Source: Carex sylvatica (Eukaryota > Streptophyta > Magnoliopsida > Poales > Cyperaceae). From it: a stretch of 64,000 nucleotides of DNA. Positions 9,003 to 62,931 of this stretch are shown here, piece after piece (within the stretch, counting starts at the first letter, position 1; every line of letters begins with the position of its first letter). The notes below the pieces were generated by a model that worked only from the letters and a program-made list of their open reading frames with translations, was not told the DNA's origin and searched no databases. The DNA is taken from assembly GCA_964058845.1 (NCBI GenBank), contig CAXKVR010000001.1, positions 620,001-684,000 of the forward strand, read 5' to 3'. The translations under genes and the position numbers were made by a program.

Positions 9003-9115
9003 GCACTTGGGTATTGGATACCAAGGAATATAACCTTAACTAGCTCCCTGTTCAAAGAAAATTTAGCTCCCATTTAAACCCAACAACCAAAAATTGAGCG
9101 CCAAACATAACAAAG

Positions 9116-26620: not shown

Positions 26621-26649
26621 AATATGATATATGTATACATATAGAGAGA

Positions 26650-31656: not shown

Positions 31657-34600
31657 TCACCATATACGCACAGATGGGATATGCTCAAATTTGTGTCGAT
31701 CTTTTCCTTGCATAGATTCGCGTAGCTCACGTGAGGGCGAACTTACATATAGCTCTTGAAGAGTCCACACCTTTTGTAGCTCGGGTAAGGCGTGCAACAT
31801 CTCACAACTGAGAATTTCGAGGTGAGTAAGGATGGGCAGAGCTCCCACTTTTATGTCCCAATGACGTAGGTTCAACAATTGAAAAAGCTCCAGTTTTTTG
31901 AGTTTAGGAAACCCTCCGGTTGAACAGATCATCTCAGTTCCCTCATATGATTCAAAAGTTAAATTAAGTATACTGAGGCTCTGCAACCTCTCCAATATGG
32001 GCATTGGATCTTCATGGAGCCTAGACCATCCTAGCGTCAATTTGGTGAGATTTGTTGGGAACATCTCAACACTTGGAACACATATATTTCTATCCCATAC
32101 TCCTTCGAGATGTAGTTTCTGTATCTTCCCATGACAAGGTAAGTCTTTTGTCCCCCCATATGGTAGCAACTGGTCACCAGGTCCTGTAATACTAAGGTAT
32201 ACCAACTGTTCTGAACTTCTCAGCACATCCTTGAGGTTTTGCCACTGTAGACCGCATGCAAAATCTTGAGACATATCAAAGCGAATTCCTAACGTACGCA
32301 AGTTGATCGTACAACATCCTAAATCAGCAATACTTTCTTTCTTCATCCTCACATTTTTAACTGTTTGTAGATTTGTATGCTGATCCCATTTTAATGGTAA
32401 ATAGAATTCCAGTGATCCATATACATGCCTTAGAGTTGGGATTACGACATCACACAAATCTATAGTGTTTCCTATAACACCACGGTCAGCATCTACTGTT
32501 GTCGATGCCTCAAAATCAATGGTTTCTAGATTATTGAAGGAAAACTCCTTAAATATATCTTGTGGAAATTGGCATTTTCTTAAACCCAAATACGTCAAGT
32601 GTATCAAGCCCTTCGGCCACTGTCTCGGAGTGAATTTGGTCATGTTGACCTTCTCCAAGGTTAACACTCTAAGTAGACTAAAACCACTATACTTCAGTTT
32701 GCCAAACCCACAAGCATCTTGTAACCATTCGGTAACACCAAAACAGATTAAAGAACGAGTGTTTTCTGAATAAACACCATCCTTAGTGAGGCTGCAAAAT
32801 TGCAGTGCCGCACGGCACGGCTTTCTAGCAGCTAGCTGGTTAACATCTTCTTCTGCTTTGGAGAATACGGTGAAGAAGTTCTTCTCTTTGGCTTCGCGAA
32901 TAGCCAGGTCCCGTAGAAGATCGTGCATACTACAGTATTTGCAGTAGCCGTTCCAAGATTTTTTAGTTACTTTAATCAAGCACCTACAATAGTATTTTTC
33001 ATACAATTAACATGAAAGAAGAAGGAAAATATTTGTTTATGAATAAGGAGGTATTACTTTAAGTCAAATTAAAATGAACACTTGGCTATATCTTTCATCC
33101 ATATAGGTAGGTATTCCTTAAAGAGGTCCCACTTGGAATATTGCAGATATGCAGTGATAGTTATATAAAATATATTTGGCCAACTCGAAATGCTAAAATT
33201 ATTACTGTAAAAATTCTTACTCGGCTAATTAATATATTAAGTGGCATATAAATTTGTTTTGAGTGGATATATTATGTTACATTACAAATGTTTGTATATG
33301 GATAAAATTAAAAATGTTGGTATTGCTTGACGGTGAAGCCATTAATTAAGAATATTGTTGTCCTCTTTTATTTAGGTCTAAAAACTACATCTAATACTCA
33401 ATGGTATTAGTTTGTTATTTACAGCTCATGTTTTACCTGACTCATAGTAATTACTCTCATGTGCTAAATTAAATTGTTGGTATATACCATAGCGCACACA
33501 TACAAATCTGATGTGATTCTTTAGAATCACAGACCCTGCTATTCTAAATCTACTCATTCATCTATTTGGAGATTCGTGCACAAAAAATAAATGATTTTGA
33601 GATTTGTGCATTCCCAAAAATAAAGAGGTGGATTTAGAATCACATAATCCTACGATTCTTTTAGAATCACAGCAGATTTATTTCCATAGCACACATGCAC
33701 GAGACCTCGTCTCTTTTCAGAAAGACATAGGTTCAATTTTCGAGAAGAACATTTGAAAAATGCTATGGTATGTACCGTACCAAAAAGCCTTTAATAAAAA
33801 TGAAAATAAAAATTGCATGCAGTCTCATTACAAAAATATGACTTTTAAAGTAATTCACAACTCATTAATCGAGATTAGTGATATTAGGCGTCTAGTTTCC
33901 AATTTAAGATTTAAATATTTTTTAAACTATATTAAGCAAATTAGGCGAGTGCAAGATGCTCCATATTCTACTTTGTATTAGCTTCCTTTTTTAAGCAAGC
34001 GCAGTACGCTGAAAATGATTTTTTTTCTCTTACCTCAACATTGCGCCAAATAAAATATATGTTGTTAAAACAATGTGTCATTTTCAATAAACTGACTAAA
34101 GCTAACTTGTTGTAGACACGAAAACCGGCCATTAATCTACTGGCAAAAGACAGTATTGTATGAAAAGTTACAAATTAATTAATTTGAAATCCATATGAAA
34201 CTATATATTAGAATTTAGAATACTAGACTTCCATCCTTCTTTAAAGAAAAGAAAACAAAGCTGTAGACATATATACTAATCACCAAAGCTAATTAGCCAC
34301 ATTTTTTTTTTTTTTTTGTCAGAAAAAATATCGATTATCTTAGTGCTCCACTCTTTCCAAAATTTTTGTTGTCAATTATGAATTTCTAGATGTACTATTA
34401 TATCTTGTTTGGATGAAAGAGAGAGGAAGAGTAGTAAGACAAGGTAAAGAAATTTTAATAAATTGTTCTTACTTGATTGAAAATTTAATAGATTTGTAAG
34501 GTAAATAGAGGTTATTAGTTTAGCTTTAATCATCTAAAGGTTTTATTGTTTTACTATTCAAATTATAAGGTAATTTAAAAATTTATTGATGAGTATAGTA

Positions 34601-37459
34601 AATAGAGGTTATTCTTTTACTTTTGCACTATTCTTTTATTGATGAGTATAGTAAATAGAGGTAATTTAAAATACATGATTAAAGCTAAAATAACTTTTGC
34701 ACTATTGAACTCCGTTCTATTTGTTTTGTTTCAGTTGGCAAGGTATGTTAAGGAGGAGTGCATGAATACGGAAAATGTTATTTAGTTGCGCTGCGATCAA
34801 AATGCTACAGAAATTGTCTAAGTTTGTAGATAGATAAGAATTTCTAGCAGACAATATTTCTTTGAGGGACAATCCATGACCTTTATGCATTAATTAGAAG
34901 ATACTAAATTTCATGCAAATATTCTTATATAGAGTAAAATCTATTTGGTATTATCATTGGAAATTACTTTTTCTTTTTTTTATCTTGGGAGAATGGTGGA
35001 ATTAAGGAAGTAAAAAGGAGATCATGTGTGTACCGGACACATATTGAATTGGGAGGGAGTTATAAATTTGGTTTGAATGTGCTGAGACTGAGCTGAACCA
35101 AAAAATACATCATGACCTTTTTTATACCTGACAAGTACCTTCAAAGTTAGAACTGAAAAAGGAGTACCTTTGCACGAGCTCTTCAAGACATTTCTCAGCT
35201 CTGTCCTCCATTGTTCCACCTCTACCTTTCGGGATGAATTCTTCAGCCATCCACATTCCGGTAAGGTGCCTTCCCGAAATCCTATAATCTTCGGGGAAAG
35301 CAGCAAAATAAAGAAAACATGATTTGAGATGGTCTGGCAAGTCTTCGTAACTCTTGGCTAGAATCTTCATGCACTTCTCCCCATCTTCATTTCTCCAATC
35401 CATGGTCTCCTCCACTTTGCTCCAAGCACTGTAGGTGCGATCTCTCCTTGTGAGGATACCACCTAGCACAATCAATGCCAAGGGTAGCCCACCGCATTTT
35501 TTCGTTAATCTTTTGGCGATTTCCAAGAGATCACCAGGGTAGTCCCCAGGTTGTATATGTTGTTGAAAAGCCCTTCTGAAGAGGAGAGCAAGGCCCTCAG
35601 CATCGGTTAGATAACCAATTTTATGTATATCTGTATTGCAATCGGCCGCTTTAGCAACATCCAGTTTTCTGGTGGTAATTATCACACGGCTCTCATTGTT
35701 CTGATCAGGTAATGCTTTTTCCAATTTCTCCCAAAAATCAGTGTCCCAGACATCATCTAGGATAATTAAGTATCTCTTGCGTCTCAACGAGCTCTTGAGC
35801 ATCAGCACTAAATCCCCATCTGTTATGGGTGGATTTTTATTTTTCATTTGAGGTTCAATTGAGTAAAGAATTTCTCTCCAGAGATCATTTAAATCGTACT
35901 TTTGAGAAATTGACAGCCATGCCCTACAATGGAAGTGCCTCTCCAATTCCGCACTGCATGTGGTTACAATAATACATTGGTTACATCAAGAAAAAAACAG
36001 TCCAAAGAGAATACATTTATTGTACAATTTTTTTTCCATGTTACAGGATTGATTAATTATCTGTATTCTTAAGAAGATTTGGACCACATAATGTAAGGAG
36101 AAGACTAATTTAATCAAGTCTTTGTGCAAAAATTACCATGAAGCTAAGAAAATTACCATCTCTTAAATTCTATTAACCAAGACAGAGTAACTAATTTTTA
36201 TTAAGGCGTAAATATTACAGTTATTATTTATGGAAAAAATTATCAGAATCATATGGGTGTAGTTGAGTAAAATTTCAGTATATTTTTTCATTAAACATTT
36301 CAGTATATTTATGTGCATGTTTACAGATCGTCATAATTTAATTTTTCTCGATTCAATTAAATTACTAAACAATCCCTTTATATAACCCAGTGTTGCAAAC
36401 AATGGTATGCGCTCGTCAAACGAAAAAAGTACTGCCAAGCGATTAATTGAGAATAATGGGGAATAATCGACCGATTAGTCGGAAAAAGCCTTAACAGTGT
36501 GGTCACCGCCAACGATTAATCGGCCGATTATTCCCGATTATTTCCGATTTAGTTAATTTGTTAAACAGGGATTTTGTTCACCATTAAAAGGAAGTGACAG
36601 GATGCTCTAGTTAATAAATACGCAAGAGGTAATTAATTACTAACAGTAATAAAGATTCATGACAAAAACTCCTCCTTCCTTACGTGATAAAAAGAAATCT
36701 AAACAAATGATCTAATTAATTTGAACAGTTTTCTTACAAACGAGTTGGTTTGGGATTTAATTTTCTTGTTAAAAAAATCTAAAAAAAGAAATCACAAACT
36801 TTTACGCAATTCATATAAGAACATCAGTTAAAAAGATAGCACATGTACCTTTTGTATACTTTTTGGGCCAAGGTGGTTTTGCCGAGGCCGCCAGTGCCCA
36901 CAATCGAGAGCACCGTGCGCCTTGAAATGCTGCTATCAAGCAGCTGCTTAATAATCTTGGCCTTGTCATCCTCAAGGCCAACAACTTCTGGATCATCAAC
37001 CTTATCAGAAGGATCTAAATCATCAACATCATCGAGAGCATCAAGCTTACTCTGAATTCCCAACTGGTTTCCACGCTTTAAAATCCGATTGAGATTTTGT
37101 GTGATACCTTCGAGCTCTTTACGCATGCCGTGCTTGTATGTTTTATAGCTTCTTTTAACAGCCGTCATCTGTTTTTTGAACCAGTTGGAACTTTCTGGAC
37201 GGGGTTGTCCAATGTTAACCTGGAAGGTATCAATCACACCATTTATTTTGTTGCCAATTTTTTCGACCTGGTGTAGCCACTCAGTTACCAAGTCACTTGT
37301 GTTTCGCTTGGAATTGGCATCTCTTAGCAAAGCATGGATCAACCGAAGTTCTTGCCGCATCTGTTCAGTCTGCTCACGCACATCCTTCAGTTCTTGAGCT
37401 TTATTAATCAAGGCATCAGCAAGCTTGCCCAACACATAGCTCACAATTTCCTCTGCCAT
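31657..37459 (-). CDS. NLR1: CC-NB-LRR immune receptor (Rx/RPP13-like)
   Basis: CNL proteins sense pathogen effectors in the cytoplasm and trigger immune responses through an ADP/ATP switch. Three exons on the - strand (37459-36849, 35953-35168, 32983-31657) join at GT-AG sites, both in phase 2, to 907 residues. Rx-type coiled coil 1-140 with WLHQVEKIGNKINGVIDTF near the EDVID position; P-loop GTGGLGKTT (188-196); kinase-2 LIILDDVW (266-273); RNBS-B SRVIITTR (292-299); GLPLAL (359-364); RNBS-D CFLYFAAFPED (416-426); MHD (485-487); LRRs from about 530 to the end. All switch motifs look intact. Intron 2 is 2.2 kb and holds a MITE. Exon 3 lies in the segmental duplication. A CT-rich run (37480-37507) precedes the start. 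Pathogen specificity is unknown. Confidence 0.92.
33504..33679. mobile_element. Short palindromic MITE in NLR1 intron 2
   Basis: Ends AAATCTGATGTGATTCT / AGAATCACAGCAGATTT are inverted, and inner words ATTCTAAATCTAC / GTGGATTTAGAAT also pair. About 176 bp. The same element sits at 63456-63631, so it predates the duplication. Confidence 0.8.
36395..36560. mobile_element. Transposon end fragment in NLR1 intron 1
   Basis: CAGTGTTGCAAACAATGG followed by repeated CGATTAATC / GATTAATCGGCCGATTATTC words resembles hAT-like ends and subterminal repeats. No matching second end was found in the intron. Confidence 0.45.
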
Positions 37460-37633
37460 GTATTTTCGATTGTAGGAAGGTCTTTCTTTCTCTCTCTTTT
37501 TTTTCCCCTTGTGCTGGGAGGGGGGTTGAAAATGATTTAGATTTGTTCTTTGTTCTTGGGGATGATTAGTAGATGTACATGAGACTAAATTAGACAAAAA
37601 GGAAAACATAAAGGATAAGCTAGCATACTAGTC

Positions 37634-37815
37634 ATGGTTCTGAAACTCGGAATCGAAATCGGTATTGGATTTTTAACTGTGAAATCGGAATCGGAAGAAT
37701 TGGCCGGAATCAAAAAAATCGGATCAGTAACTCATGTATTTTTGGCAGAAGCTTGTTTTGTAGCCAAAAAGTAGGAAAAAATTGATAAAAATAATTTGTA
37801 AAAAAACTAGACAAA
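37634..37815. mobile_element. Transposon end fragment of the CATGGTTCT family
   Basis: CATGGTTCTGAAACTCGGAATCG, GAATTGGCCGGAATC and TGTAGCCAAAAAGTA match 48592-48765 closely. The fragment is cut off where the next TA microsatellite and MITE begin. Confidence 0.6.
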
Positions 37816-37835
37816 AAACTATATATATATATATA

Positions 37836-38258
37836 GAGAGAGTAAGTCTACCATACATTGCAATGCATAGGCACCTCTGTGCATTGGACTATAAATCACC
37901 ATATTCAAAGTCCAAATGACCAATCCAAACCGTTCATCTTGTTCTCCATATTAATATGTGCTTGGAGACCAAATTTTACATTTTTTGAAATTTTGTTACT
38001 ATTTATTAAGCCACATTGAATATCGCTGATCCAACGGTTACAGTAAAATCAAAAGGCACCGTTGGATCAGTGATTTTTAAAGTGACTTAATAAATAGTAA
38101 ATAAATTCCAAAAAATATAAAATTTGGTCTCCAAGCACATATTAATATGGAGAACAAGATTAACGGTTTGGATCGATTATTTGGACTTTGAATCCATGAT
38201 TTATAGTCCAATGCACAAAGGAGCCTATGCATTGCAATGTATGGTAGCCGTACTCTAT
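37836..38258. mobile_element. Palindromic MITE, type C
   Basis: Ends GTCTACCATACATTGCAATG / CATTGCAATGTATGGTAG are inverted. The arms contain CTTGGAGACCAAATTTTACA and its complement, and the centre pairs GATCCAACGGT / ACCGTTGGATC. Both outer sides are TA plus GAGA microsatellite. Confidence 0.88.
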
Positions 38259-38270
38259 ATATATATATAT

Positions 38271-38692
38271 AGAGATAGGCTAATATACAATCGATTGTTC
38301 CTAGCCTCCCGTGCAACCAAGTCGTTTTCCGATTTTTAAAGTCCAAATGATCGATCCAAACCGTTAGATGTCATCTCCATATTAAAATGTGCTAGGAGAC
38401 CAAATTTTATATTTTTTGGAATTTTTTTACTATTTATTAAGCCACTTTGAAAATTGCTGATCCAACGGTGGCTTACCAAACAGTAAAAACCAGAAGCTAC
38501 CGTTGGATCAGCGATTTTCAAAGTGGCTTAATAAATAGTAAACAAATTCCAAAAAATGTAAAATTTGGTCTCCTAGCACATTTTAATATGGAGATGACAT
38601 CTAACGGTTTGGATCGATCATTTGGACTTTAAAAATCGGAAAACGACTTGGTTGCACGGGAGGCTAGGAACAATCGATTGTATATTAGCCTA

Positions 38693-38697
<5 letters not shown>
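38271..38697. mobile_element. Palindromic MITE, type D, near-perfect hairpin
   Basis: Ends ATAGGCTAATATACAATCGA / TCGATTGTATATTAGCCTAT match perfectly. The arms of roughly 190 bp are almost identical in inverted orientation, so both strands encode nearly the same 61-residue open frame by symmetry (not a gene). Flanked by TATATA on the left and CTCTCTCT/TATATA on the right. High arm identity suggests recent activity. Confidence 0.92.
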
Positions 38698-38738
<41 letters not shown>

Positions 38739-38739
<1 letters not shown>

Positions 38740-39145
38740 GCTACCATATATTGCAATGCATATGCATCTTTATAAATCACTGGATTCAAAATCCAAATGA
38801 CCGATCCAAACCGTTCATCTCATTCTCCATATTAATAAGTGCTTCAAGACCAAATTTTACATTTTTTGTAATTTTTTTATTATTTATTAAGGCACTTTGA
38901 AAATCACTGATCCAATGGTGCGTTTTGATTTTACTGTTACCGTTGGATCAGTAATTTTCAAAGTGGCTTAATAAATAGTAAAAATTTCCAAAAAATGTAA
39001 AATTTGGTCTCCAAGCACATATTAATATGGAGAATGAGATGGACGGTTTGGATCAGTCATTTGGATTTTGAATTCAGTGATTTATAGTTCAATGCACAAA
39101 AATGCTTATGCATTGCAATGTATGGTGGACTTACTCTCTCTCTCT
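38739..39145. mobile_element. Palindromic MITE, type E
   Basis: Ends GGCTACCATATATTGCAATG / CATTGCAATGTATGGTGGAC are inverted, with core AGACCAAATTTTACATTTT and centre GTTACCGTTGGATCAG. Flanked on both sides by TA/CT microsatellite. It is closely related to type C. Confidence 0.88.
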
Positions 39146-39159
39146 ATATATATATATAG

Positions 39160-39520
39160 AGAGAGAGAGAGAGTGTGGCTAATATTCTTTCGTATGCATA
39201 TGGGCCAAATACATACGACCCAAATTTAAAATTTTAAAATCCAAAAAGTCAATATGAACCATTCATCTTGTTCTCCATATTAATATGTGCTTGGAGACCA
39301 AATTTTACATTTTTCTGAATTTTCTTACTATTTATTAAGTCACTTTGAAACTTGTTGATCCAACAGTGACTGCTGATTTTACTGTTTTGTTAAGTCACCG
39401 TTGGATCAACAAGTTTCAAAGTAGCTTAATAAAAATATAAAATTTGGTTTCCAAGCATATATTAATATGGAGAACAAGATGAACGGTTCAGATCGACTTT
39501 TTAGATTTTGAAATTTTAAA
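39160..39520. mobile_element. Palindromic MITE, type F, right end lost
   Basis: The left end GAGAGTGTGGCTAATATTC is related to type B ends (CATACGACCCAAATTTAAA). The arms pair through the core and centre (GATCCAACAGTGAC / GTCACCGTTGGATC). The right arm stops at about 39520, before the outer ~60 bp. The junction is followed by a direct duplication of ATCGACTTCATTAAGTAGA (about 39520 and 39540). Confidence 0.75.
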
Positions 39521-41575
39521 TTCGACTTCATTAAGTAGAGATCGACTTCATTAAGTAGATATTTGCATTTGGCATGTACTACAGAAAAATAAGAAAATAA
39601 AATAATATAAGTAAACAATTGTACTAAAAAATCATCTTCTAAAAATACAATAATATATGTAAACAATTGAAATATATATACCTTTGCAAAACTGCTAGTG
39701 ATCTCTACCACCCTTCTCGGCTTTTTCTTTCTGCAATTTCGTCTAAATGTTTCTAGAACCCACTTGTCATTTCCGGTTGCCTTGGAAAAGTTCTCCGCAA
39801 CGTGTTGCATACACAACCTGTGCACACACTAGCCAGTACGTGTTGACCAACCGTAATCTTCACGACTAAACATATTTTATTCCTTTATGCTGGTCTGATA
39901 TCACACAGAAAAACTTTCCTTCCCCAATCACCCGTCTTATTAAAAACTGCATAAAGAATCCCGAGTTCTCACCATCCTCTTTGTAAACAATTGCAAAGGC
40001 CAAAGGCAACAACTGGTTCTCAGCATCATATGCACATGCTATCAATAATCTCCCCTCATAACGGCCAGACATGAAGCATGCATCAATGCTGATAACGGGT
40101 CTGATGTGTGGCACAGCTTAGATACAAGCACCAAAAGCTCATGCTATGTCCTTGAATTGTTGAGCTCCCTTTATTAGCACTCCGTCCTTATAAAAAAAAG
40201 GGTCATGCCACCTCTCATATATCGTGCCAACATTTATACTTTCCATGGCCTGCAGCAATGGTGCCAGATAGTCGTATGAATCCTTCCAACTACCGAATAT
40301 TCTGCAAACCGTAAGTTCACGACCTCTCCACAGCCTGTTGTATTTTGGGGTTACATATTTGTATTTGTGTCTGATAGTTATAGCCACCGCCTTGATGCTC
40401 ATAGATGGGTCTTCCTTAATGTCTTCCTCAATTGCATCGGCAATTAGTGTGCCTTCAGCTATGCATGGTCTGTCCTTGTGGATGCAGACTTGCATGTATA
40501 GGATGGTTCACATTTCTTAATCATCCATGCTTCTCCTGCACCTGCAGGGGTTGCAAAAAGGCAAAACTCGCACTGCGGGTGAGTTTTACATAACACAACT
40601 AATCTTGTTCGATCTCTTTTGTGTAATTTACATTCCCAGTTGCCGTGAACATGAGTCTCATAGATTTTTTTTATAAGTTCATCTATGTTGGTATAAAGTT
40701 GTCCCAGGGCAAGTTCGTCATTGTATACAACACGAAGGCCAAAATAGGTAATGTCTGCCTCTTCAAAAGCTGTGGTTTCATTGAATGTGACGACCGGATG
40801 CTTATTTCTTTGACCTCTAATCGGAAATTTTTCTTCCCTGGATAAACCTGGTACATTTGCATCGCCATCTGATAAATCATCGGATTCCCAAATCCCTTCG
40901 TATTCATCTCCCGTTTCCATTTCCCTTTCTGGTATTGCATCAATAGCATCAACATTAATATCAATATCAATTCGATTAACGGGTATCGATCTTGACTCTG
41001 GCATATTTGGAAATCATGAGATTATGGGTGTCTGTCTGGGTGGTGGTGGTAACTCTTCAGTATTTTCAGGGGAGTTGTGGTACCCAAAGTTGTCATAACC
41101 AGGGCTGTGGTACCTCTGATTGTCATAAGGAAAGTGGTGGTGATACTCCTGGTTGTCATAACCCGAATTGTCATAACCTGAAGGCCCAGTTCCGGCCACA
41201 CTAGAAGGTCCAGCTCCAGTCCGAGGAACCCTCTTTGAATATATGTCCATTACCGAGATCCCACTAGACTCAAATTGAGTGTACACAACTATCCACAAAT
41301 TTGCATCTGTTATTGAAAACCTCACAAAATAAGGTCTACTCCTCGCCCCCTTTGTGAGTTGTCAAACCATGTAGCCAATTCTATTTCATACCTGTTGTGG
41401 TTTACAGCAGTCTTTTTGTATATTAGCTGCTTGAGTTTCTGAAATGTGGTATTTTCATTAACCTCGAAGTCAAATGCCGCGTCTTTCGTGTAATACACGC
41501 CATCTACACCCTTTTACAGCTTGCCGCCCACATACAGTGCAACTAACATCTTTTCCTTAACAAACTACATTTAAA
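39406..41575 (-). pseudogene. Second decayed mudrA-type MULE transposase
   Basis: Read on the - strand: an N-terminal part from about 41550 (MLVALYVGGKL, then a stop), a Tyr-Asp-Asn-rich stretch (GYDNSGYDNQEYHHH, 41150-41050), an acidic region and MuDR-type domain (41004-40459, GNWECKLHKRDRTRLVV), SMSIKAVAITIRHKYKYVTP ... RLWRGREL (40495-40139), the catalytic block RPVISIDACFMSGRYEGRLL ... FCVISDQHKGI (40114-39866) and LCMQHVAENFSKATGND (39825). Stops occur, for example A-stop-AFGACI-stop near 40130, along with frame changes. No SWIM finger was found. It is related to the MULE at 1-8640 but distinct. Its terminal repeats were not identified, and a MITE overlaps its 3' side. Confidence 0.85.
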
Positions 41576-41589
41576 AAATAATTTTATAA

Positions 41590-41745
41590 GTATTATAATA
41601 ATTGTACAGTAATTATAATGAGCACAATAATAAATGGCTAATTAAAAAATATATATATATTGCTACAGTACTTGTACAATAATACTACAATAATTCTACA
41701 TTAATTCTACAGTAATCCTATAGTAATTGACTAATTAGTAATAAT
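41590..41745. repeat. Degenerate TACAGTAATT tandem
   Basis: Repeated TACAGTAMTT / CTACAATAATTCTACATTAATTC words with a ~12-bp spacing. They lie just upstream of the second MULE transposase start. Confidence 0.6.
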
Positions 41746-42765
41746 TAAAAAGAATTTACAAAATAATACCTGTCGTTACAGGAGACAAGCGGCTGGGCGC
41801 AGTTTTTTTTTTTTTTTGGTTCGAAATGAGGCAGAGAAGAGGGAGGGAGGGAGGGAGGGGGGTTCACGGGTGGGATAATTGATGCATAGTGGACCGCCCG
41901 TGGGGAGGGGGGCGGGGTTTGCTTGAGGAGAGGACCGCCTGTGAGGAGTGCGGTTTGCTTCAATATATGGGCTGCCCATGGACTTGACGGTCGGAGTATT
42001 AATAAATAAAAAACAGCACACAAGGGTATTGTTAAAATTTTATATTTTTAGAGTATTAATAAAAATGGCCGAAAGATTTAAGACCTAGATTTTAGTCTAT
42101 TTCCAAAATATAAAATTTCATTTTGCTGTTTTCAGAACATATCATTGGTATGATTCCCATCCAACAGTAAAGATAAAATATAAAAAATAAAACATGGCTC
42201 GAAAAGTAAATCGATTGATTTTGAAGTTAACCTCATCAATAGACTGGATGAACTTAAAAATATCATAGTTCTACTGTTCAAATATTAATGTTATGTATGT
42301 ATTGACTTGCAAACCATAAGAGAAGTACCTGAGGTGCAATAATTAAGTCTGGCACATCCGTTTAACCTGATACGAATCTCAAAACGCCCCTTATAGTTTC
42401 TATGCATTAGCACCGGATTGAATATTTGACCTGGCTGGAATTAATCTGGGCTGTTTGTTTATTATTGCACCCCTTATGTATTTGATGGGACACGCACAAC
42501 TAACTTTCAATCGAATTAATTAATAAGGATAATAAATGTATGGATATATACACCTACCACGAAACAGAGACGAGTAATGAGTTAGAGCTAGATTTCAAAA
42601 GAAAAAATAACACAGAAGGTGAAATTTTCATATACATATTTCCAAACTCTTTAAGTTATGTATTTCTGTCTATAAATTAAATTATTTTATATTTATTCAT
42701 ATATATAATACATAAAAATTATAAACTCTACACTTTTTAAATTGCAAAATTACTTGCATATTTTT
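41746..42765. other. Intergenic with poly-T and GGGA runs
   Basis: A 15-base T run lies at 41804-41818, and a GGGAGGGAGGGAGGGAGGGG run at 41840-41862. It continues with a GC-richer patch to 41990, possibly the promoter of the second MULE. After 42030 it is AT-rich with no gene. Confidence 0.5.
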
Positions 42766-42784
42766 AATTAACCCGTTTAGAATC

Positions 42785-43125
42785 TGTGGTGGTCTACTAG
42801 GAGCAGTACACAAACTCGTCTCAGGAATCTGTGGGACGCCATCTGGGTAGCGGGATGCTGGGCTATTTGGAAGGAACGAAATAGGATATTGTTCACGCAA
42901 AAGCGTACTGAGATGAGAAGCTTAGCGGCAAATGTGGCACGAGAGGCATTCAATTGGTACAGGGTGCTGGGATTGGGAGCCAGAGATAATGTGGCCATGT
43001 AACTTGTATTTTATATTTGAGATGAGCTTTGTATAAATAATAGGGTAATTTAGGGACCTCTAATATTATGTAAATAATCTTTTATATCAATGAAATTGAC
43101 AGTGTTCTCATTGTCCTTCAAAAAA
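42785..43125 (+). mobile_element. 5'-truncated LINE insertion with 19-bp TSD
   Basis: Flanked by AATTAACCCGTTTAGAATC (42766-42784) and AATTAATCCGTTTAGAATC (43126-43144), one mismatch in 19. The body encodes the end of a LINE reverse transcriptase ORF (WDAIWVAGCWAIWKERNRIL, then a stop near 43000). It then has a 3' UTR ending ATCAATGAAATTG...CAAAAAAA. Together this is a target-primed reverse transcription signature. Confidence 0.92.
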
Positions 43126-43144
43126 AATTAATCCGTTTAGAATC

Positions 43145-47845: not shown

Positions 47846-47849
47846 CTAC

Positions 47850-51540: not shown

Positions 51541-51544
51541 TGTA

Positions 51545-52280: not shown

Positions 52281-52796
52281 TGACAAAAATTGAATTTGTC
52301 AGATTGCACCTTGATCGGAGGTTGTTAATATAATCTGAAGTTTTTATTTTGAATTGTATGTTGATATCAACAATGGCAGGTATATATAATTCTATTACTG
52401 GATAGAAGATATGTGTCATTACTGGAATTGCTTGTATAATGCTATATATGTTGAATGTTCTACCTCTTTTGTATGGTTATATTTAGCAGGTATGTGTCAT
52501 TTGCAGTTGGTTATGTGTTTCTTTGGTAATTTTGTTTATCATGGTTAAGGTGTGCGCATGTTCATCTCATCCAAATAAGATATTATGCTTCTGTTAGGGA
52601 GTTTCAGTTTTACTGTTAACTTATCATGTACTGTTGAGGCCACAGAAACTATCTGCTCATTTCAACTCCAATTGAATTGACATAAAAGTAGAGTTTATAC
52701 GTACCATTCCTACCTTAATATCCTTAATATTACAGCTGCATATCTTGGATTTCGTCATACAAATTGATTGGAAAGGCGATCACATCAGACCTGTAC
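52281..52796. other. Intergenic before duplication copy 2
   Basis: No gene is seen. The copy-2 breakpoint lies at 52796/52797. Confidence 0.4.
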
Positions 52797-53220
52797 AAAC
52801 CCTCATTGTTCTACCGCTTCTAAAACCCTAGCGCAAACTGATTCTTCTCTCTCTCTACGGGGCCGACTCACTCCTTTTATGTCGGATCCGGGTGTTGTTG
52901 GAGATCCGAACTCGGTGTTGTTCGGGTGAGCTTGGATTGGCTCCTCACTTGTGCTACGGGCCCGCTTCTAATGTGATCTCAGGGCCTTGTATCTGGCCCA
53001 GCCCATTAATATTTTTCAGAAAAGAATTGTGCAACAAATAAAGAACACTGTAAAACTGGTAGAGAATAACACATGCAACATTAAATGTAGAACATGTCTG
53101 AGAAAACCAAACTCTTGAATGAAGTCCACGAAGAAAAGTAAATTTAGATTTTGTAATTTTTATATGCAGTTACTGAGAAATATATATATATTTTTTAAAT
53201 TTGGACTGTGGGGACTACAC

Positions 53221-54134
53221 TAGGTGTGAAAACAGATTGAATACGGATTGGATAGTGATAAAACTATATTCGTATTCATTTTTATTTTTCGAATGCGGAT
53301 ACGAATTGGATATTAATCGGGTACGAATACGGATTGGATATTCATCAGATACGAATACGAATCGAATATTAGTCGAATACAAATACGAATACGGATATAA
53401 ATCGAATTCCTAATTCAGATACATATATATTACAACAAGATTGTATAGCATCAGTGAAGTGAATTAATTTTTTTAATTGTAAAACAACAAGTATCCACAT
53501 TTAAAATCAGAACAAAAAAAATTAAATAATGTGTTATTTAATTAAAACAAAATGAACCATTAACAATAAATTACATCAAAACTCAATTAATTAAATGAGA
53601 CAATAATTAAAAAAAATAAAACGATTATTAGCATTTTTAAAAATTTATTATCAATTTTTAAACCTAAGATTTAATTTAAAAAGAAATAAAAATTCAAGAT
53701 GTTGTTTGAATGACGATGGGGTCCCATGACAGGACTCCTCACTCACGGATGGCCACACATATCCCACCTCTTAATTCTCTTCTCTCTATTTCTATTATAG
53801 ACGGACGCCACCCGTATCTGGATATCCGAAAAATTATTCGAAAAATTCAGAAATCCGCATATCCGAAAAATTATCCGATTATCCGAAAAATATATCCGAC
53901 AATTAAAAAATTCGGATATCCGAAAAATCAACATATCCAAATTCGGATAATTATCCGAATCCGTATCCGTATCCGCTTCTGAAATAAAAACCGAATTCGT
54001 ATCCATATCCAGATAAATCATATCCGTATCCATATTCGTATCTGCAAATTTTCCGTATCCGACTATCCGAATTCGAAAAATTCGAATACGGATCCGAATT
54101 TGATCGGATAATATCCGACCCGTTTTCACCCCTA
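53221..54134. mobile_element. 914-bp non-autonomous hAT-like element with 8-bp TSD
   Basis: It starts TAGGTGTGAAAACAGATTGA and ends, inverted, as TAGGGGTGAAAACGGGTCGG. It is flanked by GACTACAC (53213-53220 and 54135-54142). The matching site in copy 1 (24593-24602) carries a single GGACTACACTC with no insert, which proves the boundaries. The interior is filled with degenerate CGGATACGAAT / ATATCCGAAAA repeats and has no transposase. Confidence 0.96.
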
Positions 54135-54207
54135 GACTACACTCAAAAATATTTTTTAATTTGTTCCCCAACTTTTCATGTCAAATAAAAGGCAAGTATT
54201 TTTTTGG

Positions 54208-54320
54208 GTATGGATTTCTTTTTATATGTTGAAGTTAGTATTGTTAACTTATTTTGAGACCCAATTTTTGTTTTTGGTGTATTGAACTCTAAGAATGCAT
54301 GTTCTGCAATTATAGTGATC
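54208..54320 (+). repeat. F-box 3'-flank fragment, copy 2
   Basis: Duplicate of 24668-24790: GGGTATGGATTTCTTTTTAT to GTATTGAACTCTAAGAATGC. Confidence 0.75.
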
Positions 54321-55760
54321 TCAGCTCAGTTATTGTAAATTCATTTGTAAATTATGTATTGATACTTACAAATTTTGTAATCAAACTGTTACTTCCTTTT
54401 CTTATTATGTAATATTATTTTTTGTTAGATCTATTAATTGTATTGACTTCATGGTAAACATCGTTAGTTATATAGAAAAATTCTCCTAGCATGCATCAAT
54501 AACTGTTTGAAATCGATACAGGAGAGAGTTCGTTTTAGGAGGGTTCGAAAATGAATTTAAATTAAGATTCAAATATATTTGACATTTTATCAAATATGAA
54601 TTCAAATTATATATCGTATCTAAATTCCTATATATATGTATCAAGTAATTGAATATCTGGATCCGTATTTGAATATTTAACGAATACGGATATGTATTTC
54701 GAATATTGGCTCATACGGATGCGAATATGGATATTTTTCTAACAAATACGGATACATATACATAATTAATTTAAGATGTAAGTACTTCATTATATCGGCT
54801 TGTGTTTCATTTTTTATAAGATTTATATTTCTTGATATATTTTGACCTACAATATGAAAATAATTAGTGATTAATTAAATCGTCATTATATTTTTTTTAA
54901 CTTTTATTTGTTATGAAAATATTTGGAAGCTATTTTTCATGAGAATAGGTGGTATTTAAATATCTTAATTATTTATGTATTCATATCTGTATTTTTTTAG
55001 TTCAATTTATATCCATATTCAAAATTGTTCATATTCAATTTATTTTTTGTTGTATCTAAATTCCTATATATATATCAAGTATCAACATTAGCAGGGACTG
55101 TTTCTTGGGAGTGTATAATTTATTGGAGGTGAGGTCTCTCATTTCTTTCGCTCAGTTATGTAAAATAAAAACATTCGATGTACAGTATGTCAACGAAGAA
55201 ACGTATTTAGAAATAATTATCAATACATATGTTTAAAAGCTATGTATAATATTGTGAAACATTTAAAATTAGAGATATTATTGTCATACAATATAATTTA
55301 AAAAACAGGAAAATATCAGTACTGGAGATGAGTTGAAATAATTTGACTCTCATCGTTTGATCCAATTTTTTTATTTATATCCAAAAAAAAATATAAATTA
55401 AAAAAACTAATCAAATCTCGCATCTATTTCGAAAACTACCCAAATCAGAAAAAAAATTCTGGTTTCAACACCAATTTTCAGAAAAATTTTTTTCCGATAA
55501 ATGTATATTATAACCGGAAAAAAAAATTCCGGTAATGAATTTCCGAATTTTTTTTTCCGGTTTTAGAGTTTTTTTTTTTAGAAATTTTTTTTTCCGGAAA
55601 TAATATAATATGATACATGTATACATATTGGTTTGAACAGTTTGGATTTACGTTTGGAGTCGATTTGATAGGTTTAGAGTTGGTGTTATATAGGTTGAAA
55701 TGACACTGATGTTATACTAGTCAAACTCTATAATATGATATATGTATATATAATATGATA

Positions 55761-56175
55761 GAGGAGGGTTCAAATGCACTCAAATTTTTGTGCACTCAAG
55801 TGCACCCTATCTTTCAAATTATTTTTCTCCGTTTTCAAAGTCCGAATAGTCAATCCGAACCGTTAGATGCGATCTATATATTAAGATGTGCTTGGAGACC
55901 AAATTTTACATTTTTTGGAATTTTTTTACTATTTTTTTAGATTTATTGAAAATCGCTGTTTTTCGCAAATCTGGACCATACAAAAACAGCGATTTTCAAT
56001 AAATCTAAAAAAATAGTAAACAAATTTCAAAAAATATAAAATTTGGTCTCCAAGCACATCTTAATATATAGATCGCATCTAATGGTTCGGATTGACTATT
56101 CGGACTTTGAAAACAGAGATAAAATATAGGGTGCATTTGAGTGCACAAAAATTTGGGTGCATTTGAAACCTCCTC
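55761..56175. mobile_element. Palindromic MITE, type A, copy 2
   Basis: Same ends GAGGAGGGTTCAAATGCA. This copy keeps CTCAAATTTTTGTGCACTC near the left end, which pairs with GAGTGCACAAAAATTTGGG on the right. Copy 1 has lost that left-hand piece, so copy 2 is the more complete palindrome. Confidence 0.85.
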
Positions 56176-56201
56176 AATATGATATATGTATATATATATA
56201 G

Positions 56202-56483
56202 AGAGAGAGAGTGATTAGTGTGCATTCGAATGTATATGGGCCGAAATACATACGGTCCAAATTTAATTTTTCAAAATCCAAACGGCCGATCCAAACCGTT
56301 CATCTTGTTCTCCATATTAAGATGTGCTTGGAGACCAAATTTTACATTTTTCTGAATTTTTTTACTATTTATTAAGTATTTTACAAAATTGTTGATTCAA
56401 CGGTGGCTGCTGATTTTACTATTTTGTTAAGCCACCGTATGTATTTCGACCCATATATATTCGAATGCACATTAGTTTCTCTA
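56202..56483. mobile_element. Palindromic MITE, type B, copy 2
   Basis: Same as 26650-26926, with GAGAGAGTGATTAGTGTGCA on the left and TGCACATTAGTTTCTCTATA on the right. Confidence 0.8.
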
Positions 56484-57376
56484 TATATATATGTATATAT
56501 AATATAATATATATATTCAAGACTCAGAATTAATATTTTATGCCGAAGAAAAATCCGCCTTCCGGTTTGTTTTTTTATTTTTGACACTGTTTTTGTTCCG
56601 TCGAATCTGCTTTGAAAATCGCACGGATCGAACCCTGGATCAGCGAAAACCCTCTCTCTCGCTGGAGCATCGTTGCTCTCCTCTACCCTGAAAGAAAATC
56701 AGTCGGTCACAACTCAGATGCAATAATCGGCGTAACACAGACATAAGGTGAGTCTCTTTCTATTCAATCGTTCTTAATATTCCAAAGATGGTAGCAACGC
56801 AACATTGGTCTGATTATTGCATCCTAGTGCTATGGTTTAATGGTTTAAGACATTAAGGTCTTAATTTTAAGTACGGTACTTCACAAACACTACAATTGTA
56901 GCTCTCTCCACCTGTTTATAAGTGTTTGTTTTCAGTTCGAGCAGTGTCCTACCCATATATTTTAAGGATTTACAGGATTACACCGTCAAGTGCCATATTT
57001 GTACTGGTACTTCACTGGTCTGAGTTGGTATGGTATGGTTCATCAAAGTGATGCTTTGCTGGTACCAAATCATACACTCATCATTGGCTGGCTAGTGGAA
57101 TCATAGACAGTTTTTTAAGGAAGTTTGTAAAAAAAGACCCCATTTTTTTGTTCAATAGCAAAGCTATTTATCATTTTAGTAACTGCATATGAAAAGTTTG
57201 AGAAAGAATATCTTTATTTGTCTCTTTATTTTCCCAGTACACCTTGAAAACATTAGCCGCCAACTACCTGATGACCATGAAATAATGATAATTAAAATGA
57301 GCCTTTGGGAAGCAAATATATGACAAATCTTATGCTCTTTAAACATTATTAAACTTTGCTTATCTTTGTTTCTTAG

Positions 57377-57662
57377 TATCACTGGTGGCCTCTTTGCTCC
57401 GGTATGGAATCCCCTCTCTGAGGAATCGAGCGCACTGTGGCAGCAGGTGTTTGAACCTTGTGGTGTGAATGAAACAGCATCGGTAGATGACAGTAAATGT
57501 CACTTTGGACCTTGTGGTGTGAGTGAAATAGACATTTTTTTTTTCAAATTAAAGCGAGAAATTTCTGGACAATATTATGCCGGGATTGCTGGTACAGAAG
57601 ACAGCAGCGCAAGTACGTCAGTGGATGCCGCTGTTATGAGCATTAAAAACAGGGAAGCATAG
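57377..57662 (+). pseudogene. Captured exon of unknown gene, copy 2
   Basis: The 95-residue frame is identical in protein sequence to 27816-28101. It again follows GTTTCTTAG with no ATG at the start. The flanks 56960-57300 and 57660-58100 are also almost unchanged, so identity here reflects recent duplication rather than proven selection. Confidence 0.5.
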
Positions 57663-59201
57663 GAGATTGTTTTTATAATTTCTTTCTAGGTGCCTTAGTG
57701 ATGTTGTTATGCTTATGATGTTGTAAGCATATTACTCTTTAGGATATGGATTCTTTTGACATGTAATTTTTCAATTTGAAATATGTGAAATGAGACACCT
57801 GTAATAGTAATTTGAATTTACATTGATTGATGCATATTTGAATTCAAAATGAAAGCAAGATTGTATATTCAACAAATATTTGAAGTCCTAATCATGCTCA
57901 ATACTTATTTGCTTAACAGTATAATTCAACTAGTTTTGATTCCTGAAATCAGTAGTTGAACATTATTTCCAATATTTTGGGAATAATGGTTTTTTTAGTG
58001 TTTTCTGGAGGTAATAGCCAGAAAATTGAGACTTACCAGAGGATTGAAATTTGGTTAGTTGCAATTTTAAGTATCGAGCATTGGTAGCAACACTGGTACA
58101 ACAACCCTTCAAATATTAACAATATACAAAATTTACAAGCATGGCAAAAAATAGAAATAGAAATAGAAATACTTAAAATTGCATCACAAAGACAAATAAG
58201 AGTTATTTTCAAGAGGCATTGTTGTTATAAAAATAAAATATCACACTATACACAATTTACATAATTTACAAGTATGACCAAAAATAGAAATAGAAACAGA
58301 AATACTTGCATGGCATCATAAAGTCACATAGGAGTTGTCTTCAAGGGGCATTCTTGTCATAAACATAAAATATTATAACACGAACAGCTATTACCACAAA
58401 TTGATATAAGGATTCTAGCTATACAACAACAATCTCCAAAAAATTTAAAGCTCATTATTGTAACTCTTATCAGAATTATGATTCTCTCTGCGTAATCTCT
58501 CTATAACTTGGTTCAGCAGTGGATCTCCTGGCCTTCTATAGGTCTGATCACCAATTTTTACTCATATGCATCGCTCTGGCTTAGGATAAACTCCTTCAAC
58601 TAAAATTAGCAGCATGATCATCAATATTTTATTATTTGTTAGAAATGTGAAAGTAAGATTCAATTTAGGTTTACTTGAAGCAAACTACATTACCCAAGAG
58701 TAAAGTACTCTTAATGGCAACTATTTCACAATTTCGCTGAATGCACAACAAAAGAAGATAATAGAGTACATTGACTCAATAAATTTGACACTACATTAAA
58801 ACCTAAGATCCCATGCTCCAGCTATTGAATTTAAAAACATGGTAAGGAAATCTACTCTCCTTGTCCTATAAACAATATCTTTTCAAACTAGTTCTGCTAC
58901 AAAATAAAATTATAGGAAAAAACGAATAGACTAAAAGAGAGCAATCGATACCCAGACAATACTGTAGCTGTAGATCTAACTAGTATTTATTAAGCTTGGA
59001 AACAAACATCACATGTTTATATCTTAAACCATAGTCCACTGATCTTGAAAGCAAATTTAGATCAAAATTTGATGATAACAATACCCTGCCTTCAACAATC
59101 TTAACCATTAACCAGATCTACTCGTATCTACACCGAAAACCCCAAAATTTTGCCAAAAAATTCATAATTTCTCACATAACAAAATAAGGAGAAGATCTCA
59201 C

Positions 59202-59594
59202 CTTGTAAGAAATCACAATTCTTGGCCTCCTTCCTCACCACATCCAAGACCGAATCAATCAGCTCAGCTCCCTCGGTGTAATGTCCCTGGCCCAGTTGTT
59301 CCCAGCTCCCGACTGTCCAAAGACGAAGTTGTCAGGCCTAAAGACCTGGCCAAACGGACCCGACCGGACCGAGTCCATCATGCCGGGTTCTAGATCCATC
59401 AACACAGCCCTCGGCACGTACCGACCACCACTGGCCTCGTTATAGTACACATTGATGCGCTCAAGCTGGAGATCTGAATCACTAGCGTACTTGCCCGTGG
59501 GGTCGATGCCGTGCTCATCACAGATCACCTCCCAAAACTTGGCACCGATCTGGTTCCCGCATTGGCCACCCTGTATGCGGAGAATCTCACGCAT
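59202..59594 (-). pseudogene. Captured beta-tubulin exon 1, near full length
   Basis: From ATG at 59594 the - strand reads [20 protein letters not shown], then [16 protein letters not shown] and [20 protein letters not shown], the beta-tubulin N-terminus with the GTP loop. The exon ends at ACAAG/GTGAGATC (59202) and is 393 bases, one short of the 394-base first exon usual in plant beta-tubulin genes. The missing G (NNWAR, then DITPRELS instead of [10 protein letters not shown]) breaks the frame. The same missing G is in copy 1, so it predates the duplication. A leader exon with donor CTG/GTAAGCT lies at 60048-60230. No exons 2 or 3 follow within the element, so no functional tubulin can be made. 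Confidence 0.94.
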
Positions 59595-60534
59595 CTTGGA
59601 CTGATTACTGATATTGCAAAAAATCACATCTAAGTACTAATATTGCAAAAAGATCATATCTAAATTATTCGTAAGAAACTAGTACATTTACTATAACATT
59701 TATGATTAATAACAATAATATAATAAGAACTAGAGAATTGATTACTGGACATCACAACACTGGAAATAATCTAAACTAAACAAATTGATCACAGTACTGA
59801 TGTCACACAACTATCCAATTACACTGTGGATTAAAATCTTAAAAAAAAAGGTGGAAATATCCAATACAAAGACCTATAATTGGCAAAGACTTTGACTTTG
59901 AAAATATTTAAATCAGCCACTCAAAAGGTTTAAATTTTTCTTAGAACATTACTGGACGTAACCTAAATCAGATACAAGAGAAACCAGACCGACAAGAGAG
60001 GAAGAGAGAACGAGAGAAACAAAGGGAAGGAGGGTGGGAGAGCTTACCAGAGAAATAGAGAGGAAAGTGACCGTACATAGAAGGAGAGGCCAAGAAGAGA
60101 GACGCAAATCGCGAGAGGAGAGCAGCGCTTAGAGAGGAGAGGAGCGGGAGAGGAGAGGTGACAAGAGAGGCGATTTGTGATTTAGGGCTGGGTGGAGAGA
60201 AATGGCGTGAGAGAGAGAGAGCGGTGGGTTGGGGATTTTATTGCACTGGAGACATCCAGTTAAATGGAGAAGGGCTTTAACTTAATTTACCCATTTTTTT
60301 TTCATCTCTGGCCGTTAATTAAAGCCCAGATGTGTGGTTCTGATACAGTGTAAAATGTGTCATATTAAAACCGTGCAAGTGGATCCCTCCTCATGTATAA
60401 TACATATAATATAAAAAATAAAAATTTAACTGTGAATATTTTTTTTCTTCAAATTCTATTTATAGTAAAAAAAAATAAAAAAAATAAATCGGAGCGCAGA
60501 TTTTTCTGCGGTCTGAAAATTTAATTTTAGATCG

Positions 60535-60648
60535 TGAATATATATATTATATTATATATACATATATATACATATATTATATTATATATACATATATATA
60601 CATATATTATATTATATATACATATACATATATTATACTATAAAAAAC
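60535..60648. repeat. TA-rich tandem, copy 2
   Basis: About three units of TATATTATATTATATATACA followed by TATATATACA. It is expanded and cleaner than the copy-1 counterpart at 30595-30712. Confidence 0.8.
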
Positions 60649-61577
60649 TGAAAAATGAAAAAAAAATCTTTAAAAAAAAATTCATAAAAAAAAATTCATG
60701 AAAAAAAAAATCTAAAACCGAAAAAAAAAATTATGATTTTGAAACTTAAAACCAAAATTTTTTTTTCCGGAAATTCATTACCGAATTTTTTTTTCCGGTT
60801 TGGGTAGATTTTGAAATAGACGCGAGATTTGGTTATTTTTTTAAATTTATATATTATTTTTTGAATATAAATAAAAAAAATCAGTCGTTTGATCTATTGT
60901 AAAATATGAGATTTCGTTTCACAATATTCAGAAGAAAAATATTCGAACTTCTGTCCATTCAATTAAAAAGAAAGAAATATTCAGAAGAAAAATATTCGAA
61001 CTTCGCGTCATACTGTGCATCAAATATTTATTTAATGTTACAACCAAAGATTCAATTAAGTCCATGCAATTAATAAACGAATTTAAGTAAATCACAACAA
61101 TCCAACCCAATTCTAATCCATGCAATTAATAAGTGTACAATTAAATTATAAAAACTGAAAGTACATAGTTAACAATAGAAAACTAAATCTAGCAATTACA
61201 ACAACGGGCAAGCATGAAAAGTTGAACGGTGCAGGAATTCAACAAACTGAAGTAAAGGAACTTATAATATTATAATGAGACTCACATCTGACCGCTCGTC
61301 TCTAATTAAGCAGAGAGAATATGTATGATTATGCCATGTCTTCTTCTTGTATTTTTCCGTATGATCTCTTAATTTTTATTGTTAGCAAACTAAATCTTTT
61401 TATTGTTAGTTAATCGGCCTGCTCAACATGTAATTAAGAGTAGTTAAATTACAGTGAAAATAATAAAAAACAGCTGATAATCGAACTTAAAGCCTTACAG
61501 CTACGCAAAGTATATGAATAGCAAATCAAGACTGAGGAATTTGTAAAGAAATTTTACAACCAAAGAAGCATGAGATC

Positions 61578-62931
61578 TCACCATATACGCACAAATGGGA
61601 TATGCTCAAATTTGTGTCGATCTTTTCCTTGCATAGATTCACGTAGCTCACGTGAGGGCCACTTTACAGATAGCTCTTGAAGAGTCCACACCTTTTGTAG
61701 CTCGGGTAAGGCGTGCAACATCTTACAATTGCTAATTTCGAGGTGAGTAAGGATGGGCAGAGCTCCCTCTTTTATGTCCCAATGACGTAGGTTCGGCAAG
61801 GTAAGAAGCTCCAGTTTTTTGAGTTTAGGAAACCCTCCGGTTGAACAGATCATCTCAGTTCCCTCATATGCGTGGAAAGTTAAATTAAGTATACTGAGGC
61901 TCTGCAACCTCTCCAATATGGGCATTGGATCTTCATGGAGACTAGAATCTGCTAGCGTCAATTTGGTGAGGTTTGTTGGAAACATCTCAACACTTGGAAC
62001 ACATATATTTCTATCCCACACTCCATCGAGATGTAGTTTCTGTATCTTCCCATGACAAGGTAAGTCTTTTGTCCCCCCAAATGGTAGCAACTGGTCACCA
62101 GGTCCTTTAATACTAAGGTATACCAACTGTTCTGAACTTCTCAGCACATCCTTGAGGTTTTGCCACTCTTTTAGACCCCACCCTTTTAGACCCCGTGCAA
62201 AATATTGATCCATACCATAGTAAATTCCTAACGTACGCAAGTTGATACAACATCCTAAATCAGCACTAAATTCTTTCTTTATCATCACATTTTTAACTGT
62301 TTGTAGATTTGTATGCTGATCCCATTTTAATGGTAAATAGAACTCCAGGGATCCATATACATGCCTTAGAGTTGGGATTACGACATGACACAAATCTATA
62401 GTATCTCCTATAACAACTCGGTCATGAGCATCTACTGCTCTCGATTTCTCAAAATCAATGGTTTCTAGATTATGGAAGGAAAACTTCTTAAATATATCTT
62501 GTGGAATAGAGCAGTTTCTTAAACCCAAATACGTCAAGTGTTTCAAGCCCTTCGGCCACTGTCTCGGAGTGAATTTGGTCATGTCTACATTCTCCAAGGT
62601 TAACACTCTAAGTAGACTAAAACCACTATAATTTAGTTTGCTAAACTCACAAACCTCTGATGAATATTGGCCAACACCAAAACAGAGTAAAGAACGAGTG
62701 TTTTCTGAATAAACACCATCCTCGGTGAGGTTGCAAAATTGGCAAAATTGCACTGCCGCACGGCATGGCTTTCTAGCAGCTAGCTGGTTAACATCTTCTT
62801 CTGCTTTGGAGAATACGGTGAAGAAGTTCTTCTCTTTGGCTTCGCGAATAGCCAGGTCCCGTAGAAGATCGTGCATACTATAGTATTTGTAGTAGGCGTT
62901 CCAAGATTTTTTAGTTACTTGAATCAAGCAC
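61578..62931 (-). CDS. NLR2 (partial): last exon of a CC-NB-LRR paralog
   Basis: The copy-2 counterpart of NLR1 exon 3. The acceptor ATTGTAG lies at 62932-62938, and the first G completes a split Arg codon as in NLR1. About 450 codons are open to a TGA at 61578-61580. It contains MHD (SMHDLLRDLAI) and the LRR region, ending HKFEHIPFVRIW. Relative to NLR1 it has a 3-residue insertion after AVQFC, and a tandem 18-bp-type expansion at KGWGLKEWQN. About 60 residues differ, many in LRR strand positions. The upstream CC and NB exons should lie beyond base 64000; whether they are intact is unknown. Confidence 0.88.

What the first reader, a model, noticed from the sequence alone, without database searches (positions are those of the whole stretch)
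31657..62931. Duplicated NLR exons have diverged at LRR surface positions while the adjacent intron is nearly unchanged
Seen: exon 3 of NLR1 (31657-32983) and NLR2 (61578-62931) differ at about 60 of 450 residues plus three indels. The changes cluster in LRR strands: KLTLGWSRL/KLTLADSSL, NLTFESYEG/NLTFHAYEG, ELFQLLNLRHW/ELLTLPNLRHW, EILSCEM/EISNCKM, LYVSSPSR/LSVKWPSR. The first ~400 intron bases beyond the exon show only a few changes. Established: solvent-exposed LRR residues of NLRs often evolve under diversifying selection. Inference: strong positive selection after a recent duplication, or gene conversion from a third paralog into one LRR exon.
Basis: partly seen in the sequence, partly recalled or inferred. 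Interest (0 to 1): 0.78.

Follow-up and report, generated by a model that had tools for sequence, protein, structure and literature searches.

The report
Sedge immune-receptor cluster with hypervariable LRR loops
Neighbouring copies of a plant immune-receptor gene in a sedge-like genome stay much alike overall but differ strongly in the surface loops that probably touch pathogen proteins, through selection and shuffling between copies; this is a clear new example of a well-known pattern.

Summary
NLR1 and NLR2 exon 3 (31657-32983; 61578-62931, minus strand) differ at 62 residues plus four indels, while the adjoining 400 bases of intron 2 differ at 1. They are two of five intact close CC-NB-LRR paralogs: four on this contig in one orientation, one on another contig. 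In all ten pairs dN/dS exceeds 1 in exon 3 (1.11-1.60), but is 0.38-0.58 in the NB-ARC exon. Codon site models favour a positively selected class in 5 of 6 exon blocks fitted with separate trees. Variable residues sit at repeat positions 7-11, just after each LRR beta strand: 43 of 65 such codons. This resembles the unusual surface reported for Arabidopsis RPP13. Exon 3 is also a patchwork of short segments shared among paralogs. Two points of the reading change. The intron end is a poor neutral yardstick: it evolves slowly in all five copies and against an outgroup; other A-B silent divergence is 3-7%. And no single donor was found: selection and repeated exchange act together. Verdict: a well-supported new member of a known kind.

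The parts
31657..32983 (-). NLR1 exon 3: end of winged helix, linker and LRR region (13 repeats used here); most divergent part of the A-B duplicate
35168..35953 (-). NLR1 exon 2: most of NB-ARC; dN/dS 0.38-0.58 over ten pairs
36849..37459 (-). NLR1 exon 1: Rx_N coiled coil and P-loop; dN/dS 1.07-2.59 over ten pairs
32984..33383 (-). 3' end of NLR1 intron 2: slow-evolving, near-identical in all five copies
33384..35167 (-). Rest of NLR1 intron 2; 40/1231 differences from NLR2 over the part 33384-34619
61578..62931 (-). NLR2 exon 3; its exons 2 and 1 lie beyond the window (contig C1 about 686750-687535 and 688460-689076)
24595..31656 (.). NLR1 downstream flank shared with the NLR2 flank from 54135 on: divergence 2.7-3.4% outside one identical tract
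27680..28619 (.). Tract with no substitutions against 57241-58215 (886 identical bases, a 35-base gap, 54 identical bases): probable recent exchange
   Evidence: 0/894 against background, Fisher P 5e-12, tract chosen after seeing it

Best explanation
This is a cluster of RPP13-like CC-NB-LRR immune receptors. Exon 3 encodes the recognition surface. Selection favours amino-acid novelty at repeat positions 7-11, the loops that leave the C-terminal edge of each LRR beta strand, while NB-ARC and the LRR core are conserved. Short exchanges between at least five paralogs reshuffle the variable patches, so each exon 3 is a mosaic and the five are about equally far apart there. The intron end looks unchanged mainly because that stretch evolves slowly in every copy. 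Shown: gene models, selection signal, position in the repeat, mosaic structure, slow intron end. Inferred: that the variable edge binds pathogen effectors or a host partner, and that exchange is by gene conversion rather than unequal crossing over.
For: Five open spliced frames of 905-918 aa; NLR1 has Rx_N, NB-ARC, WH_DRP and LRR_14 domains. NG86 dN/dS above 1 in 10 of 10 pairs for exons 3 and 1, below 0.6 in 10 of 10 for exon 2. M0 omega 1.83 versus 1, P 0.0008; M1a/M2a LRT 138 on the best tree and 139.5 summed over six blocks with own trees. Variable codons by repeat phase: 0 of 13 at each of positions 2, 3 and 4, but 10, 11, 6, 8 and 8 of 13 at positions 7-11; 0 of 5000 random phase sets reach 43 (mean 27.5, maximum 42). 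LRR model pLDDT 86.8; best folds NRC2, NRC3, NRC4 and Sr35. PHI: 0 of 2000 permutations at 30 and 60 nt. Six blocks give six different best trees. With multi-change codons dropped, the LRR outside positions 7-11 has 28 nonsynonymous to 2 synonymous changes (omega 5.1, P 0.006).
Against: Five sequences are few. M1a/M2a can be inflated by recombination within blocks, by multi-nucleotide mutations and by uneven synonymous rates; one 'selected' site (residue 399) is leucine in all five copies, so it is an artefact. If codons with two or more changes are dropped, exon 3 omega is 1.50 (64 nonsynonymous, 15 synonymous, P 0.09), and in positions 7-11 it is 0.80 (15 versus 6), with 28 of 65 codons dropped there. 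The random-phase maximum (42) is close to the observed 43. PHI is not significant at 200 nt (P 0.20). Exon 2 also gives a weak selected class (LRT 6.9 and 24.5). Copy E may be a divergent allele rather than a fifth locus: its contig matches C1 at 90-98% in many blocks.
Confidence: 0.85

Rival explanations
1. Peak of divergence under concerted evolution: the whole repeat is homogenised by gene conversion, and selection keeps old, divergent patches only at the recognition loops. It can hold together with the main reading.
For: In exon 3, silent divergence falls with distance from variable residues: 10.9% in variable codons, 5.2% at 1-2 codons, 2.3% at 3-5, 1.1% at 6 or more (permutation P 0.009). 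Taking all synonymous sites, A-B exon 3 (16/282) is above the non-coding background (P 0.023). Positions 7-11 keep 0.52 of the divergence seen to F, against 0.18 in the rest of the LRR. The substitution-free flank tract points to exchange.
Against: In residue-invariant codons A-B silent divergence is 9/222 in exon 3, not more than 8/141 in exon 2 and near the 3.1% non-coding background (difference not tested). HKA-like tests of the intron end are not significant (P 0.73, 0.06, pooled 0.19). Multi-nucleotide mutation also predicts part of the clustering.
Confidence: 0.35
2. Very recent duplication followed by a burst of positive selection on NLR2 or NLR1 alone, as first read.
For: Intron end 1/400; dN/dS above 1.
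Against: Silent divergence elsewhere is 3-7%; the same intron end is near-identical in all five copies; all ten exon 3 pairs are similarly divergent (dS 0.050-0.064, dN 0.065-0.086).
Confidence: 0.05
3. A single gene-conversion event brought one LRR exon from a third, more distant paralog.
For: E shares 6 of its private bases with F within 90 nt (P 0.037, uncorrected, 1 of 10 tests).
Against: For A and B, private bases matching F or H are few and unclustered (P 0.16 to 1.0). Beyond the five copies, no match above 78% DNA identity was listed in the held genome (a lower bound by the tool's own words). A and B residues are shared piecemeal with C, D and E.
Confidence: 0.05

Closest known systems
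RPP13 of Arabidopsis (highly variable CNL; PMC8226289, abstract and sections 11 and 13 read)
   Same: CNL; [quoted passage not shown] The paper calls this unusual among hvNLRs, says the residues are required for ATR13 recognition and that they overlap the ZAR1-RKS1 site.
   Different: RPP13 variation was measured between alleles of one species; here it is between paralogs in one monocot genome, with no known ligand.
SH3-CNL cluster of coffee (PMC3113787, abstract and section 9 read)
   Same: Clustered CNL copies, gene conversion among paralogs, Ka/Ks above 1 at solvent-exposed LRR residues, conserved NB domain.
   Different: In coffee only the xxLxLxx residues exceeded 1; here the whole LRR exon and the coiled-coil exon do.
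RPP8 family of Arabidopsis (PMC6771003, abstract and passages read)
   Same: CNL paralogs of about 905 aa with introns; frequent exchange between copies; selection needed to explain the diversity (balancing selection in the paper).
   Different: Three loci known from population samples; here one genome only.
Red/green opsin type 'peak of divergence' (review PMC3924837, section 10 read)
   Same: Exon differs while neighbouring introns are alike between duplicates.
   Different: There introns are homogenised by conversion; here the intron end is better explained by slow evolution.

Membership tests
CC-NB-LRR (CNL), RPP13-like | Rx_N + NB-ARC + winged helix + LRR in one open reading frame after splicing | tested here: met
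   Pfam hits above cut-off for all four in NLR1, the only copy scanned; five open spliced frames
CNL, RPP13-like | Nearest named relatives are RPP13-like or RPP8-like CNLs | tested here: met
   23 of the top 24 of 79 hits bear such names, all Carex, best 72% (scored on residues 480-907)
Highly variable NLR (hvNLR) | Residues with at least 1.5 bits of entropy among alleles of one species | not testable with these tools
   Only one genome; five paralogs are not alleles
RPP13-type recognition edge | Variability at repeat positions 7-10, with positions 2 and 3 conserved | tested here: met
   0 of 13 at positions 2 and 3; 10, 11, 6 and 8 of 13 at positions 7-10
RPP13-type recognition edge | The edge binds an effector or partner | not testable with these tools
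   No ligand known
Cluster under diversifying selection | dN/dS above 1 in LRR, below 1 in NB-ARC | tested here: met
   all ten pairs; models; weaker without multi-change codons
Cluster with intergenic exchange | Phylogenetic incompatibility clustered along the gene | tested here: met
   PHI 0 of 2000 at 30 and 60 nt in exon 3 (P 0.20 at 200 nt); joined gene parts 0 of 1000
Peak of divergence under concerted evolution | Silent divergence raised around selected sites over a conversion-lowered background | tested here: inconclusive
   Local gradient present; exon-wide elevation P 0.023 with all synonymous sites, little with invariant codons; HKA-like tests not significant

The most novel reading that the evidence does not exclude
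A sedge RPP13-like cluster uses the same C-terminal LRR edge for recognition as Arabidopsis RPP13 and ZAR1, so this docking mode predates the monocot-eudicot split; and the loops are old micro-haplotypes, with linked silent changes extending only a few codons, kept apart by selection while short exchanges reshuffle them among copies.
Probability: 0.25. Interest if true: 0.5.

Novelty: new member of a known kind. Interest (0 to 1): 0.3.

Why it matters
It names the residues most likely to set recognition specificity in a sedge NLR cluster, adds a monocot case that looks like the RPP13-type recognition edge, and warns that the intron next to an NLR exon can be a misleading neutral yardstick.

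Tried and rejected
Recent duplication: rejected, because silent divergence elsewhere is 3-7% and the intron end is near-invariant in all five copies. Homogenised intron end: tested with HKA-like tables, not significant, so left open rather than shown. Structured RNA in the gene region: 0 Rfam matches at gathering score in 31000-38500. Distant donor for A or B: no clustered sharing with F or H. GENECONV-like runs: several pairs low (A-D exon 1 P 0.003, A-B downstream flank P 0.0005), not corrected for ten pairs. Canonical xxLxLxx mask: 25 of 65 codons variable versus 55 of 262 in the rest of the LRR (P 0.006), dN/dS 2.25 versus 1.27; shifted masks fit better, which led me to positions 7-11 after the fact; the random-phase control searched the same 20 offsets. 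One search's 300-base intron comparisons with copy C, and one search's columns beyond about -285 for C, compare unrelated DNA, because C carries an insertion of about 1.1 kb there; corrected, where C's window at -900 still looks misaligned and was not used. The A-B background leaves out the identical tract 27701-28594 and three bases beside the stop codon, which wrongly labels 'stop'; with the tract it would be 224/8117. G was used only for the intron end, because its exon is interrupted. F's exon 1 was not used for dN/dS because it is frameshifted.

Full report
What is there. The window is contig C1:620001-684000 of a held 64-Mb genome of 950 contigs. NLR1 (A) is complete in the window on the minus strand: exon 1 36849-37459, exon 2 35168-35953, exon 3 31657-32983. 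NLR2 (B) has exon 3 at 61578-62931 and exons 1-2 beyond the window. Copies C (C1:701958) and D (C1:748250) follow in the same orientation, and E lies on contig C211. All five spliced frames are open, 905-918 aa. Three more distant copies, F (C220), G (C65) and H (C875), are about 77% identical in exon 3; F has a frameshift in exon 1, G's exon 3 is interrupted and H is cut by its contig end. Copy counts are lower bounds.

The observation. A and B exon 3 differ at 62 residues with four indels, and the 400 intron bases next to the exon differ at one. Non-coding divergence of the same duplicate is 224/7223, or 3.1%, counted over aligned flanks and intron without the 400-base intron end and without an identical tract of about 0.9 kb. 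NG86 synonymous divergence of the pair is 5.3% in exon 1, 7.2% in exon 2 and 6.0% in exon 3; in residue-invariant codons of exon 3 it is 9/222.

Why the intron looks unchanged. The last 284 intron bases carry six substitutions and one 1-base gap among all five copies. Against F, this piece has diverged by 0.153-0.172, while exon 3 synonymous sites have diverged by 0.358-0.381; the next 152 bases are similar (0.113-0.129, copies A, B, D and E). The last 92 bases differ from F at 8 of 92 and from G at 11 of 91. HKA-like comparisons with four-fold sites are not significant (P 0.73 for exon 3, 0.06 for exon 2, 0.19 pooled). Taken alone, A-B in this piece is lower than both the background (P 0.004) and exon synonymous sites (P 1e-4). 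So slow evolution of this intron end explains most of the contrast; recent homogenisation is possible but not needed. Beyond 400 bases the intron returns to 3.25% between A and B.

Selection. NG86 dN/dS over ten pairs: exon 1 1.07-2.59, exon 2 0.38-0.58, exon 3 1.11-1.60. For A-B alone, dN above dS is not significant (P 0.18), but nonsynonymous divergence far exceeds the non-coding background (P 2e-10). Since recombination can mimic this, I refitted six fixed blocks of about 75 codons with their own trees: five blocks keep LRT 13.5-54.5, the first (pre-LRR) gives 0.01. Exon 1 is also positive (LRT 15 and 41) and exon 2 weakly so (LRT 7 and 25). Cautions: a leucine-only site scored as selected. 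Without multi-change codons, exon 3 omega falls to 1.50 (P 0.09) and positions 7-11 to 0.80 with 28 of 65 codons dropped, while the rest of the LRR gives 5.1 (P 0.006), exon 1 2.14 (P 0.03) and exon 2 0.50.

Where the changes sit. The AlphaFold2 model of NLR1 exon 3 from 46 sequences has mean pLDDT 86.8, and its best solved matches are NRC2, NRC3, NRC4 and Sr35. With 13 repeats aligned on their LxL cores, variable codons number 0 of 13 at repeat positions 2, 3 and 4, four at 5, 0 at 6, and 10, 11, 6, 8 and 8 at 7-11. That is 43 of 65, while the 320-residue LRR stretch has 78 variable positions in all; none of 5000 shuffled repeat phases reached 43 (maximum 42). Of 62 A-B changes, 29 fall in these 65 codons. 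The same side of the repeat, positions 7-10, is reported for RPP13 and overlaps the ZAR1-RKS1 contact (PMC8226289, sections 11 and 13).

Exchange. Incompatible sites cluster in exon 3 (PHI 0 of 2000 at 30 and 60 nt, P 0.007 at 100, 0.20 at 200), and six blocks choose six different trees. Different parts of the gene pair different copies: exon 1 A-D and B-E, exon 2 A-C and B-E. Silent changes concentrate next to variable residues in exon 3 (10.9, 5.2, 2.3 and 1.1% with distance, P 0.009) and exon 1 (P 0.03), not clearly in exon 2 (P 0.13). Short imported or long-kept patches would do this; multi-nucleotide mutations may contribute. A flank tract without substitutions (27680-28619) points to recent A-B exchange outside the gene.

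Known or new. Positive selection at exposed LRR residues, conserved NB-ARC and gene conversion in a CNL cluster are documented in coffee SH3 (PMC3113787, abstract and section 9), and exchange with selection in RPP8 (PMC6771003, abstract and passages). One search for Cyperaceae with NBS-LRR listed five papers, none of them by title on a sedge NLR cluster. I therefore rate this a new member of a known kind.

Noticed in passing
27680-28619 and 57241-58215: 886 identical bases, a 35-base gap, then 54 identical bases between the NLR1 and NLR2 downstream flanks, against 3.1% background: probable recent exchange outside the gene.
   Followed up: partly
36849-37459: The coiled-coil exon also has dN/dS above 1 in all ten pairs, while 47 invariant codons lying six or more codons from any change show no silent variation.
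   Followed up: partly
L011 / contig C1 near 703560: Copy C carries an insertion of about 1.1 kb in intron 2, roughly 285 bases before exon 3.
   Followed up: no
L016/L017 (contig C220): Copy F has a frameshift in exon 1, while exons 2 and 3 are open.
   Followed up: no
contig C211 (L014), exon 3 codons 403-426 of the alignment: Copy E shares six private bases with distant copy F within 90 nt (P 0.037, uncorrected, 1 of 10 tests).
   Followed up: no
9098-11004: Two ORFs of a cytochrome P450 (CYP79-like, name recalled, not searched).
   Followed up: no
810-2211: Tandem array of units spaced about 146-176 bases, 8 copies listed.
   Followed up: no
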